From the NCBI RefSeq assembly GCF_028747205.1, contig NZ_CP112880.1, forward strand, positions 2,418,001 to 2,482,000: a DNA stretch of 64,000 bases, written 5' to 3'. The notes beneath the pieces were generated by a model, which worked only from the letters and a program-made list of their open reading frames with translations, searched no databases and had not been told where the DNA came from. Source of the DNA: Streptomyces sp. CA-278952 (lineage in GTDB: Bacteria > Actinomycetota > Actinomycetes > Streptomycetales > Streptomycetaceae). The number at the start of each line of letters is the position of its first letter. The stretch's first letter is position 1. Below are positions 126 to 3,829 of the stretch, one piece after another. The translations under genes and the position numbers were made by a program.

Positions 126-588
126 CAGAGCCGTGGATTCGGTGCCTGCGTCCGGGACACCGCGTCCGCCGAGGACACTGCACCGGCCACCGGCCGGCAG
201 GGACCCCCACGAAGGCGGGCACCGGCAACATGCCGGGTCTTTCGACCCTTGCGGAACCTGGCGACCGGGATGCTGCGGCGGTGACGAATCGACAACATCG
301 CCGCCGCCCTGCGGCACCGCGCCCGCGATCTCGCCGCCCACCGGCTCTCCTCGGGGTCAGGTGATCAAACCGCGCGCAACCGCGAGACCGACGAGGCCCT
401 GACGCACCCCCCACGCTGCGTTCCCAGCCGGCTCGGTCCCGGCGGAAAGCCGCCTTTCCTGCGCCCCGCTGACGTTGTCGATCACCTCTCGTCAGGCTTA
501 TTTTCGGGCCTGGTTGGGTAGGTAGCGCGCTAACACCGATCGTTCTGAGGCCGATCGCGTCTCCGCACTCGCAGGGGAGGTGAAGGGT
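126..588. other. Non-coding gap before the NLR pair
   Basis: No convincing gene is seen here. Short open frames exist on both strands, but they have no ribosome binding site and no recognisable protein. The last 60 bases should hold the promoter of the downstream pair, and a GGGAGG ribosome binding site lies at 575-580. I see no clear terminator for the fragment to the left. Confidence 0.5.
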
Positions 589-1002
589 ATGGATCCCCTT
601 ACGCTGGCGGCAGGCAGCGCACTTGTCGCAGCAATGGCCACTGACAGCTGGCAGCACTGTCGTGACACCGTGGCCGACTGGTGGAGGCAACGTCACGCGA
701 ATCGAACAGACGGCCTGGATGCCGCCCTTGATCACCTTCGCACCCAGGTCCTGGCCACAGGTCAGGAGGGAGATCAGCCGGGTGAGGACGCCTTGACCGT
801 GGCATGGGGAGAACGTTTTCAGCGGCTGCTCGACTCAGACCCTCACATGGCGTCCGAAATACGAGAGTTGATTGACCGGCTCACTCCGGCAGCCTCCTCC
901 GCCAACGACCGGGATACTCCAGTGGTCACCATGAAGGCGGACGCACGGGACAACGCGCGGATTTTCATGGCCGGACGGGACCAGCACATCACTGGCTCAT
1001 GA
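589..1002 (+). CDS. Small helical protein with C-terminal amyloid-type motif (Bell-like candidate effector)
   Basis: A 137-residue protein of unknown function. Residues 1-35 form a hydrophobic then amphipathic helix (MDPLTLAAGSALVAAMATDS followed by a Trp-rich stretch), and residues 40-100 are predicted helical. The C-terminus (residues 122-135, NARIFMAGRDQHIT) closely matches residues 19-32 of the NLR encoded next (HAQIFVAGNDMHAT). From family knowledge, a short motif shared between the C-terminus of a helical Bell-domain protein and the N-terminus of an adjacent NLR marks bacterial amyloid signalling pairs, where the helical domain is thought to attack membranes. I infer that role here. The ATG at 589 is chosen because GGGAGG lies 8 bases upstream; a GTG at 580 overlaps that site. 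The stop overlaps the NLR start (ATGA). Confidence 0.75.
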   Translation: MDPLTLAAGSALVAAMATDSWQHCRDTVADWWRQRHANRTDGLDAALDHLRTQVLATGQEGDQPGEDALTVAWGERFQRLLDSDPHMASEIRELIDRLTPAASSANDRDTPVVTMKADARDNARIFMAGRDQHITGS

Positions 1003-3620
1003 GCGAGCTGAGCGGCGATGCCGGGGTTCGGCAGGAGATCCACGGCGAGGGACATGCTCAGATCTTTGTCGCGGGCAACGACATGCACGCGACATTCGCT
1101 GCCCCACCGCCGCCCGACGCCGTCGTCGCACTGCGCACGCTCCCCCGTGACATCGCGGCCTTCACCGGCCGCGACAGTGAACTCCTGCGCATCATGCGCG
1201 CGGACACCGTGTCCTCCGGGGCGTTGACCATGCACGCAATCGACGGCATGCCCGGAGTCGGCAAGACGGCTCTGGTCACCCGTATCGCCCATATCCTTGC
1301 CGACCGGTATCCGGACGGGCAGCTCTTCGTCGACCTGCACGCACACACTCCCGGGCGCCAGCCGGCGGACCCACAAGGGGTTCTGACCACCCTTCTCGTC
1401 GGCCTCGGTATTGCCCCCAAGGACGTACCGGGCAGCCTGGAGGCCTGCACATCACTGTGGCGCGACCGGCTCGCCGGTCGCCGCGTACTGCTCGTCCTGG
1501 ACAACGCCGCCGACGTGGCCCAGGTCGAACCGCTCCTGCCGTCCCACCGTGCCAACCTGGTCCTGATCACCAGCCGCCGACGCCTCCTGGGCCTGGACGG
1601 GGCGGCATTGACGTCCCTGGGGACGCTGCCCCCCGACCAGGCGAGCGACCTCTTCGTCCGCCTCACACGGCGCGAGCGGACGGACTCGAACAGCGACACC
1701 ATCAGCGACGCAGTCGCCGCGTGCGGTCACCTGCCCCTCGCGATCAACCTGCTCGCATCTCGTCTGGCGCATCACCCGGACCGTGAGCTCACGGCCTTCG
1801 TCGGCGAGTTCACCACAGCGCTGGACCGCCTGGACGAGCTCCAGGCCGGCAACCGTGCGGTGGCCGCCGCGTTCGACCTGTCCTACCGTGCGCTTCCCGC
1901 CGACAGGCAGCGCTTCTTCCGCTGCCTGGGCATGCATGCCGGAGTACATATCGACCCCTTCGCCGCGGCGGCATTGGGCAACATCTCAGTGGCTCAGGCA
2001 CGGCGCATGCTGGACTTCCTGCACTCGGAACACCTCGTCGACGAAATATCCACCTACCGCTACAGGTTCCATGACCTCATCCGCGCGTTCGCCCGGACAC
2101 TCTCGTCCGGAGATCCCACACTTGAGCAGGACCGAACGATCGCACGCATGCAGGCCTACTATCAGCAGGCGGCGGAATCGGCGGACCGATATCTCACCGA
2201 CGTCGAACGCCCCGGGCCTTCCTGCCCCTCCACCTTCGCCGTCCCGGACGTGCACAGCCATGAACAGGCTCTGGAGTGGATGCGCACCGAACGTGCCAAC
2301 CTGCTGGCTTGCATGGAAACGGAATCCCAGAACGCGAGTCGGCACAGAAGAGGGCTTACGGCCGCGCTGGCGTCTCACCTGCGGCAAGAGGGCCCTTGGC
2401 CGGAAGCCGCGTCGCTTCATCGAGCGGCTGCCGAATCGGCGCGGGACTCCGGCGCCTCCCTCGAACAAGCGAACGCCCTGTTCGACCTCGGGCGGATTGA
2501 ATCCGCTATGGGTGACTACGCGACCGCCGAGGACACCCTTCGCTTGGCACTGGACCTCTATCGGACACTCGAAAACTCACTGGGGCAGGCCAACGCCCTG
2601 AATATGCTGGGCAATGCACAGCAGATCACGGGGCGCGGATCCGAAGCCGTAGAACTGCAACAGAAGGCGCTGGCGCTTCACGAACAGCTCGGAAGTCGAC
2701 TGGGGCAGGCGATCAGCCTCTTCGGCCTGGGGCGGATAAAGCAGGCCACGGGAGACTATGCGGGGGCGGCGGAATTGCACCTGAGGGCGTTGAGCTTATA
2801 CCGGCAGACGGGAAACCCCATCGGACAGGCGAACGCTCTCAATATGCTTGGGCAGGCCCGCTACGCAACAGGTGAGTACAGCCTCTCGGCCGATCTTCAC
2901 CAGAAGGCTCTGCTGCTCTACACGAGTATCGGGAATCGCCTGGGCCAGGCGCACGCACTGCACGACATCGGACGTGCGGAACAGGTGGTCGGGGACAATG
3001 CCGCGGCCCTCGCATCACACCGGCAGGCACTGGTTCTCTACGAAACGGTCGGCAACCGTCTGGGACAGGCGAACACGTCCCACGACCTGGGCCGCCTGGC
3101 GGAGACGACAGGCGATCGTATCGCGGCCTCCGCATTCCTCCAGCGAGCCCTGACCCTTTACGACTCGGTCGGTGACCGGCTCGGACAGGCGAATACACTC
3201 CACGCCGTCGGCCGCCTGGAGCAGGCGGCCGGCAGCCCTGCCGCCGCCGACCTGTACCGACGGGCGTGGGAACTCTTCCGTGCATCAGGGGATCCTGATG
3301 GAGAAGCCCAAGTCGTGTACAGCATGGGGACACTCCGGGCCGAGACGGATCCAACCGAGGCGCTGGGCAATTTCAGCCGGGCTCGACGCCTCGCCCGGCA
3401 GGTCGGCAACCCGTTCACCGAGGCAGAGGCGATCGAGGGCACCGCCCGATGCCAGGCGCACCTCGGCGACCGCCGGTCCGCACTCATTACCATCCGGCAG
3501 GCGTTGAAAATCTATCGCACGATCGGCGTCGCGGAAGCGGCATCAGCCGACGCCTTCCGTGCGGAGCTGGAAGCGGAATTCTCCGAACCAGAGGCACCCG
3601 AGGAGCGGAAGAGAAGGTGA
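999..3620 (+). CDS. NLR-type STAND ATPase: NB-ARC plus tetratricopeptide repeats
   Basis: An 873-residue signal-transduction ATPase. Residues 12-33 carry a QIFVAGNDMH motif shared with the upstream small protein. The NB-ARC core follows: P-loop GMPGVGKT at 83-90, Walker B VLLVLDN at 163-169, sensor TSR at 191-193, GHLPLAI at 243-249, and a winged-helix segment ending RFHDLIRAFAR at 356-366. From about residue 488 to 830 there are eight or nine TPRs of about 40 residues, each with a GxRLGQAN-type signature. Family knowledge: TPRs sense a trigger, the NB-ARC oligomerises, and the N-terminal motif recruits the effector. The start codon overlaps the previous stop, so the two are co-translated. 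Leucine 600 uses TTA (2796-2798), so expression should need bldA. The trigger is unknown. Confidence 0.9.
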   Translation: MSELSGDAGVRQEIHGEGHAQIFVAGNDMHATFAAPPPPDAVVALRTLPRDIAAFTGRDSELLRIMRADTVSSGALTMHAIDGMPGVGKTALVTRIAHILADRYPDGQLFVDLHAHTPGRQPADPQGVLTTLLVGLGIAPKDVPGSLEACTSLWRDRLAGRRVLLVLDNAADVAQVEPLLPSHRANLVLITSRRRLLGLDGAALTSLGTLPPDQASDLFVRLTRRERTDSNSDTISDAVAACGHLPLAINLLASRLAHHPDRELTAFVGEFTTALDRLDELQAGNRAVAAAFDLSYRALPADRQRFFRCLGMHAGVHIDPFAAAALGNISVAQARRMLDFLHSEHLVDEISTYRYRFHDLIRAFARTLSSGDPTLEQDRTIARMQAYYQQAAESADRYLTDVERPGPSCPSTFAVPDVHSHEQALEWMRTERANLLACMETESQNASRHRRGLTAALASHLRQEGPWPEAASLHRAAAESARDSGASLEQANALFDLGRIESAMGDYATAEDTLRLALDLYRTLENSLGQANALNMLGNAQQITGRGSEAVELQQKALALHEQLGSRLGQAISLFGLGRIKQATGDYAGAAELHLRALSLYRQTGNPIGQANALNMLGQARYATGEYSLSADLHQKALLLYTSIGNRLGQAHALHDIGRAEQVVGDNAAALASHRQALVLYETVGNRLGQANTSHDLGRLAETTGDRIAASAFLQRALTLYDSVGDRLGQANTLHAVGRLEQAAGSPAAADLYRRAWELFRASGDPDGEAQVVYSMGTLRAETDPTEALGNFSRARRLARQVGNPFTEAEAIEGTARCQAHLGDRRSALITIRQALKIYRTIGVAEAASADAFRAELEAEFSEPEAPEERKRR

Positions 3621-3625
3621 CGGAC

Positions 3626-3829
3626 ATGAACACGGAGCTCAATTGGTTCAAGAGTTCCAGGAGTGAGCCTCCTGGGCCAGGAGGGTCTCAGGGATGCGTG
3701 GAGGCCGCCACACTCGAAGGAGAAGGAATAGCGATACGTGATTCGAAGGAACCAGGCGGATCCGTACTGCGGTTCTCCGGAACAGCGTGGAGTGCCTTCA
3801 CTTCCATGACGAGGAGCGACACTCCTTAG
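3626..3829 (+). CDS. DUF397 family protein
   Basis: A 67-residue protein with the DUF397 pattern: LNWFKSSRS near the N-terminus, a central GCVEAA, and IRDSKEPGGSVLRFSGTAWSAF near the C-terminus in two adjoining stretches. Such proteins are common in Streptomyces, usually next to an XRE-type regulator that they antagonise. Here no XRE gene is adjacent; it sits 5 bases behind the NLR gene and could be its third operon member. The ATG at 3626 is preferred because AGAAGG lies 9 bases before it; an in-frame GTG at 3617 is too close to that site. Confidence 0.8.
   Translation: MNTELNWFKSSRSEPPGPGGSQGCVEAATLEGEGIAIRDSKEPGGSVLRFSGTAWSAFTSMTRSDTP

What the first reader, a model, noticed from the sequence alone, without database searches (positions are those of the whole stretch)
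589..3620. NLR/STAND ATPase coupled to a Bell-like helical protein through a shared amyloid-type motif
The small protein ends NARIFMAGRDQHIT and the NLR begins with HAQIFVAGNDMHAT; the genes overlap by four bases. This is the arrangement described for bacterial amyloid signalling sequences (BASS), where an activated NLR templates amyloid folding of a pore-forming partner, a bacterial analogue of fungal HET-S and animal RHIM necrosis. The motif pair and gene overlap are seen; the cell-death or anti-phage role is inferred.
Basis: partly seen in the sequence, partly recalled or inferred. Interest (0 to 1): 0.85.

Follow-up and report, generated by a model that had tools for sequence, protein, structure and literature searches.

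The report
Bacterial sensor-effector pair sharing amyloid-like motif
Two overlapping Streptomyces-type genes encode a STAND/NLR sensor and a small, probably helical protein that carry the same short amyloid-like tag, a known kind of putative bacterial cell-death switch, and some relatives of the small protein sit beside membrane proteins that are not NLRs but carry a matching tag.

Summary
A 137-aa protein (589-1002) ends NARIFMAGRDQHIT-GS; an 873-aa NB-ARC/TPR protein (999-3620) carries HAQIFVAGNDMHAT at residues 19-32; the genes overlap by ATGA. From this pair alone the match is modest (8 of 14 identical). Relatives settle it: among 188 loci with a partner gene within 60 bp, effector tails match their own partner far better than permuted partners (z = 18.5), also for 26 divergent effectors without the QAGRD core (z = 9.6). 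Twelve other STAND/TPR places in the genome show no motif. This is the published BASS/Bell amyloid-signalling arrangement: a new member of a known kind. The Bell fold could not be modelled (server busy), and BASS family number, fibrils and a death or anti-phage role were not testable. Phylogenetic independence of the covariation is only partly resolved. Beyond the window, 12 of 130 motif-sharing pairs have a partner without a P-loop but with the motif before a predicted early membrane helix, in ten unrelated groups; two more occur in a BASS3-type set. This bears on the published question whether amyloid signalling exists without NLRs.

The parts
576..580 (+). Shine-Dalgarno-like GGAGG, 8 nt before the effector ATG
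   Evidence: read in the sequence
589..1002 (+). effector: 137-aa Bell-like small protein
   Evidence: relatives in 107 of 199 genomes of the genus, own genome counted
595..648 (+). N-terminal hydrophobic Ala-rich segment of the effector (aa 3-20), mean Kyte-Doolittle 1.18 over the family
   Evidence: only moderately hydrophobic (best 19-residue window of the window protein 1.0)
940..993 (+). effector-side motif DARDNARIFMAGRDQHIT
999..1002 (+). ATGA overlap of effector stop and NLR start
   Evidence: offset -4 in 130 of 188 loci
999..3620 (+). STAND/NLR, 873 aa, NB-ARC plus TPR
   Evidence: Pfam NB-ARC 9.1e-7, TPR_12 3.2e-41
1041..1094 (+). NLR-side motif HGEGHAQIFVAGNDMHAT
1230..1775 (+). 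NB-ARC domain (aa 78-259)
1245..1268 (+). Walker A GMPGVGKT
1488..1508 (+). Walker B LLVLDNA
2067..2084 (+). MHD-like FHDLIR
   Evidence: the motif name is from general knowledge
2469..2819 (+). TPR repeats (sensor part): the best-scoring Pfam stretches, aa 491-607; six TPR_12 stretches in all, whose full extent the call does not list

Best explanation
A two-gene amyloid-signalling (BASS-type) switch. The NB-ARC/TPR protein is held inactive (inferred). A trigger bound by its TPR part lets the NB-ARC oligomerise (inferred). Its N-terminal motif copies are brought together and nucleate a cross-beta stack (inferred). This templates the same fold in the C-terminal motif of the neighbouring effector (inferred; the shared, co-varying motif is shown). 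The clustered helical domain then exposes its hydrophobic N-terminal helix, damages the membrane and stops or kills the cell (inferred), most likely as an abortive response to phage or other invasion in a filamentous bacterium (inferred). The ATGA overlap would couple translation and keep the two proteins in proportion (inferred).
For: Motif pair and overlap. Motif in 126 of 131 distinct effectors and in 105 of 121 non-window partners by an effector-only profile. Cognate better than permuted partners: z = 7.0 among 49 representatives under 60% body identity; z = 18.5 for all 188 pairs and z = 9.6 for 26 effectors without the QAGRD core. The residue before AG(R)D is matched in class (Q with Q; M or I with V, M, I, A or L) in 102 of 106 adjacent pairs. 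Twelve other STAND/TPR places in the same genome show no motif, while the second effector-NLR pair there does. Motif propensity is beta-like, body propensity mostly helix-like. BASS/Bell pairs of this layout are published, and BASS3-type peptides show amyloid-like aggregation (PMC8086366: passages and section 13; PMC7889193: passages; PMC9815663: passages).
Against: No fold model. Bell assignment rests on a weak profile match and propensities; residues 28-34 even score as beta, and the N-terminal helix is only moderately hydrophobic. Specificity is at the level of motif class more than of single pairs: the cognate partner is the single best of all partners for only 17 of 188 effectors (14 of 85 and 13 of 47 representatives). 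In 12 of the 26 divergent representatives the cognate ranks 9th or lower. On a tree only 1 or 2 independent changes lie on well-supported branches, against 6 and 7 on the best trees. The Q/non-Q rule fails in the 5 loci where a non-Q effector's only other motif frame lies in a non-adjacent ORF (L092, L097, L098, L099, L136). No experimental data for this motif class were found.
Confidence: 0.62

Rival explanations
1. The shared motif is a docking or co-assembly peptide that brings effector and NLR into one ordinary oligomer by short beta-strand pairing, without amyloid templating. Activation is by proximity on the NLR ring.
For: The coupling data show pairing, not fibrils. Effector and NLR motifs differ systematically at some columns (G against D at column 3, H against H/Y at column 15).
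Against: Like-with-like matching at single columns (8, 9, 14, 15) is what in-register stacking predicts. Several clearly different motifs recur in the same places. BASS3-type peptides aggregate as amyloid (PMC8086366, section 13).
Confidence: 0.2
2. The coupling is real but the output is not killing: the helical domain controls membrane state, dormancy or development in hyphae.
For: No toxicity data. N-terminal hydrophobicity is moderate. The relatives found are in actinobacteria (one search covered only the class).
Against: The layout parallels fungal NLR cell-death pairs (PMC7889193, passages). Patchy and fast-evolving distribution, with copies on plasmid records, fits conflict genes better.
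Confidence: 0.13
3. The NLR is an AfsR/HaaT-like regulator or biosynthesis accessory, and the small gene is an unrelated neighbour.
For: The body aligns to the HaaT (704 bits) and AfsR (371 bits) models.
Against: Both scores lie below the curated cut-offs (1125 and 1430). Pfam shows no DNA-binding domain. No RiPP enzyme was noticed among the upstream ORF starts listed, but no domain search of them was made. The neighbour recurs with a matching motif across loci.
Confidence: 0.04

Closest known systems
BASS / Bell-NLR amyloid signalosomes (Dyrka et al. 2020, not held; seen as described in PMC7889193 and PMC8086366)
   Same: Adjacent or overlapping genes; motif at the effector C-terminus and the NLR N-terminus; small predicted helical effector; filamentous actinobacteria.
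   Different: Family number of this motif not assigned (published profiles not held). PMC9815663 (passage) notes an ARD triplet at the C-terminus of BASS2, which resembles A(G)RD here. Bell fold not modelled.
Fungal HET-S / HELLP type NLR-HeLo pairs and the animal RHIM necrosome
   Same: Receptor and executioner share a short motif (works like).
   Different: No sequence relation was tested; the likeness is architectural. PMC7889193 says Bell has no direct detectable homology to HeLo, PMC9815663 calls it a homolog (passages).
HaaT, AfsR and FxSxx-COOH TPR proteins (NCBIfam)
   Same: Related STAND-TPR body.
   Different: The NLR scores below each curated cut-off; HaaT profile positions 1-82 and AfsR positions 1-263 are not in the best matched stretch. 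Their N-termini were not searched for motifs.
Avs and bNACHT anti-phage STAND systems
   Same: STAND sensor with C-terminal repeats (recalled).
   Different: PADLOC gave only a generic TPR model; the effector here is a separate gene.

Membership tests
BASS/Bell-NLR amyloid signalling | Effector and NLR genes adjacent or overlapping | tested here: met
   ATGA overlap at 999-1002; -4 in 130 of 188 related loci
BASS/Bell-NLR amyloid signalling | Same short motif at effector C-terminus and NLR N-terminus | tested here: met
BASS/Bell-NLR amyloid signalling | Partner is an NLR (STAND NTPase with repeats) | tested here: met
   NB-ARC and TPR, Walker motifs
BASS/Bell-NLR amyloid signalling | Motifs co-vary between partners | tested here: met
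   phylogenetic independence limited
BASS/Bell-NLR amyloid signalling | Effector domain is a Bell helical bundle with hydrophobic N-terminal helix | tested here: inconclusive
   mostly helix propensity; hhalign to seven BASS3-type effectors 47.6%, E 1.9e-4 over 27 columns, nothing significant with a single sequence; structure prediction never accepted (25 tries, server busy)
BASS/Bell-NLR amyloid signalling | Motif matches a published BASS1-10 profile | not testable with these tools
   profiles not held; Dyrka 2020 not in the library
BASS/Bell-NLR amyloid signalling | Motif forms amyloid and cross-seeds | not testable with these tools
   needs peptides
HaaT (NF041717) | score at or above curated cut-off 1125 | tested here: not met
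   703.9 bits
AfsR (NF053617) | score at or above curated cut-off 1430, DNA-binding domain | tested here: not met
   371 bits; no such Pfam domain
PADLOC defence systems | specific system model | tested here: not met
   effector no hit; NLR only generic TPR PDLC01169

The most novel reading that the evidence does not exclude
Amyloid signalling in actinobacteria is a modular bus that does not need NLRs. The same effector family is coupled, by a matching motif and often the same 4-base overlap (7 of 12 cases), to single-pass membrane proteins. Their short N-terminus would carry the motif inside the cell and their C-terminal domain would lie outside, so signals from outside the membrane would be passed inward by templated cross-beta assembly. 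The residue before AG(R)D (Q against M/I/V) would help keep co-resident channels apart.
Probability: 0.4. Interest if true: 0.78.

Novelty: new member of a known kind. Interest (0 to 1): 0.52.

Why it matters
The window pair adds a clean example, with a second pair of a different motif class in the same genome, and the relatives give a quantitative covariation test for a system known mostly from prediction. The review PMC7889193 (passage) asks whether signalling amyloids exist in pathways not dependent on NLRs. The NLR-free, membrane-anchored partners found here make that question directly testable with two short genes.

Tried and rejected
Chance similarity: rejected, although whole-protein alignment of the single pair is not significant. 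Generic feature of NB-ARC proteins: not supported; 12 other STAND/TPR places of the genome (L172-L183; two of them lie in one 1087-aa frame, and with 1.5 kb flanks some N-termini may fall outside) show no motif in six frames. DUF397 gene at 3626-3829 as a third conserved member: not regularly found beside relatives. Profile link to PDB chains: 5 matches, best E 0.73. Pfam over 64 effectors: weak hits in at most 7 of 64 members, best E 6.5e-4 in one member. Text search for three motif strings: 0 papers. Later work on the function of bacterial amyloid NLR pairs: none seen in the listings, nor in the passages read of PMC8195603, PMC12881547 and PMC7885112. Phage records: no match to the effector. 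My first P-loop pattern missed the AxxxxGK[ST] form and was replaced. The one-sequence hhalign of a BASS3-type effector failed; the 7-sequence profile gave a weak match.

Full report
What is there. The window lies in an 8.21 Mb single-contig genome of a Streptomyces-like organism (judged from its relatives). At 589-1002 a 137-aa protein starts with ATG behind GGAGG. Its stop overlaps the ATG of an 873-aa protein (999-3620) by ATGA. The large protein has NB-ARC (9.1e-7) and TPR domains (3.2e-41), with Walker A, Walker B and an MHD-like motif in order. The small one has no PADLOC, Pfam or NCBIfam match.

Chance. The two 14-mers share 8 residues. Whole protein against whole protein, the alignment is not significant (512 of 5000 shuffles reach it). 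Tail against head it is (0 of 20000). An 18-column profile built from effectors only, window left out, scores 23.1 in the NLR at residue 15, against a maximum of 12.8 in 2000 shuffles.

Relatives. The effector has relatives at E <= 1e-3 in 107 of 199 genomes of the genus, own genome counted. At E <= 1e-8 a profile of the family matches in 51 of 394 genomes and 11 of 137 genera of the class, 25 of the 51 being the genus itself. A pattern-seeded scan of 84,980 species genomes found 224 related stretches, of which 79 distinct loci were kept; the best is 53% identical. Eight of 72,556 plasmid records match, one of them 11.85 Mb long and so chromosome-sized; in two the match is annotated next to a NACHT protein. 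No phage record of 50,697 matches. So it is widespread, patchy and fast-evolving.

Data sets. The window, 60 loci fetched from the genus search and the 79 loci make 140 rows with 131 distinct effectors. The motif scores above threshold in 126 of 131 effectors and in 107 of the 122 that have a candidate partner within 130 bp; with an effector-only profile and the window left out it is 105 of 121 partners. I added 100 loci, many with a matching body but a different tail, to give 240. Of these, 188 passed the filter (distinct effector of 100-260 aa, partner ORF starting within 60 bp) and 52 were dropped; 130 of 188 have the offset -4.

Covariation. Among 49 pairs with bodies under 60% identical the cognate motif score is 46.3 against 38.4 permuted (z = 7.0). 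Columns 8, 9, 14 and 15 are matched above chance at the floor of the test (p 0.0005). At column 9 the 106 adjacent pairs are Q-Q 88, non-Q with non-Q 14, mixed 4. With tail-to-head alignments over 188 pairs z is 18.5; for 47 representatives under 50% identity 13.1; for the 26 of those without the QAGRD core 9.6. In 8 of these 26 the cognate partner ranks first (L091, L244, L251, L262, L265, L272, L280, L307). L091 is a variant of the same motif, while L262, L265, L272, L280 and L307 have clearly different ones. In 12 of the 26 it ranks 9th or lower. A partner bears this motif class only when its effector does: 110 of 116 agree, 6 effectors have it without the partner, 0 the reverse.

Limits of that test. 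Matching is by class more than by single pair: the cognate is the best of all partners for only 17 of 188 effectors, 14 of 85 and 13 of 47 representatives. Trees of about 120 columns are poorly resolved: the Q/non-Q state changes 6 times on the best tree but gives only 1 independent pair on starred branches, and the motif class 7 times with 2. Partner bodies help: non-Q partners include NB-ARC/TPR proteins, an nSTAND1/WD40 protein (L047) and unrelated membrane proteins (L046, L054, L075). Against: 25 effectors lacked an adjacent motif partner by my filter. On rescanning, L114 and L141 have one directly behind them after all. L092, L097, L098, L099 and L136 are non-Q but have a Q-type motif frame elsewhere in the locus. 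These may not be cognate, or the rule is soft.

Control. Searching the own genome with the NLR gave 12 other places. None shows the motif in six frames (best -0.3; the NLRs of the two real pairs score 23.1 and 46.3). Two of the 12 lie in one frame, and with 1.5 kb flanks some N-termini may be outside the fetched DNA. The second pair (L032, -4 overlap) is of the Q class, RVYQAGRDQH with RVFQSAGDQH. The genome also has an effector remnant, L186.

What the small protein is. Family propensities give helix over most of residues 4-98, with a short beta-scored stretch at 28-34, and a beta-like motif (hydrophobic moment at 170 degrees 0.97, at 100 degrees 0.16). Residues 3-20 are Ala-rich, mean hydropathy 1.18. 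BASS3-type effectors, found with a peptide printed in PMC8086366, share the layout, have similar hydropathy maxima, and align weakly to this family (47.6%, E 1.9e-4, 27 columns). I read this as a probable Bell domain, not a proven one.

How it most likely works. Shown: gene coupling, motif sharing, motif co-variation, intact STAND motifs. Inferred from the BASS and HeLo literature (PMC7889193 passages; PMC9815663 passages): oligomerisation, cross-beta templating, release of the N-terminal helix, membrane damage. Inferred with less support: phage as trigger.

Beyond the window. Of the 130 pairs (of 188) with tail-to-head score at least 40, 110 partners hold a P-loop pattern. Of the other 20, 12 have a predicted membrane helix within the first 130 residues, 3 a later one and 5 none (simple hydropathy threshold and pattern). 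The 12 fall into ten groups by blastp beyond residue 45, and 7 of the 12 have the -4 overlap. Lys plus Arg before the helix exceed those after it in 9 of 12, are equal in 1 and fewer in 2, so a cytoplasmic motif is likely but not certain. Named examples: L131 (Embleya hyalina, PQQ-type propeller) and L138 (Streptomyces sp. SID11385). In the BASS3-type set of 8 loci, 2 have such partners (L212, L218), 4 have large partners with a P-loop-like site (L213, L214, L216, L217), and for 2 no partner was read (L215, L219, the latter without the motif). PMC7889193 asks whether signalling amyloids occur outside NLR pathways. I saw no paper describing this in the listings, but Dyrka 2020 itself is not held, so priority is not settled.

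Verdict. A real, probably functional BASS-type pair: known kind, new member. The more novel lead is the NLR-free membrane partner.

Noticed in passing
window 3626-3829: DUF397 gene starting 5 bases after the NLR stop (2.5e-17), possibly co-transcribed; not regularly found beside relatives.
   Followed up: yes
L131, L138, L050, L046, L054, L075, L087, L091, L224, L229, L265, L307: Effectors paired with proteins that lack a P-loop, have a predicted early membrane helix and carry a matching N-terminal motif.
   Followed up: partly
L212, L218: BASS3-type effector followed by a small predicted membrane protein with the same BASS3-type motif and no NLR.
   Followed up: partly
L186 around 1501-1596 (own genome C1:3152553-3152648): Remnant of an effector gene, 59-codon frame with the N-terminal part only.
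   Followed up: no
L087 3730-4998 (minus strand): Partner N-terminus repeats GDQNIV/GDQTIV/GHQQIV/GDQHIH in tandem, with a weak beta-roll Pfam match below its cut-off.
   Followed up: no
L114: Two effector-type bodies and two motif-bearing long frames on opposite strands within one locus.
   Followed up: no
L257, L261, L264, L267, L271: Effector-type bodies with a different Gly-rich tail and no convincing adjacent partner; may be solo or paired in trans.
   Followed up: no
window 999-3620: NLR body is closest to the HaaT cyclophane-RiPP TPR model (704 bits, cut-off 1125) and then AfsR, linking these STAND-TPR families.
   Followed up: partly
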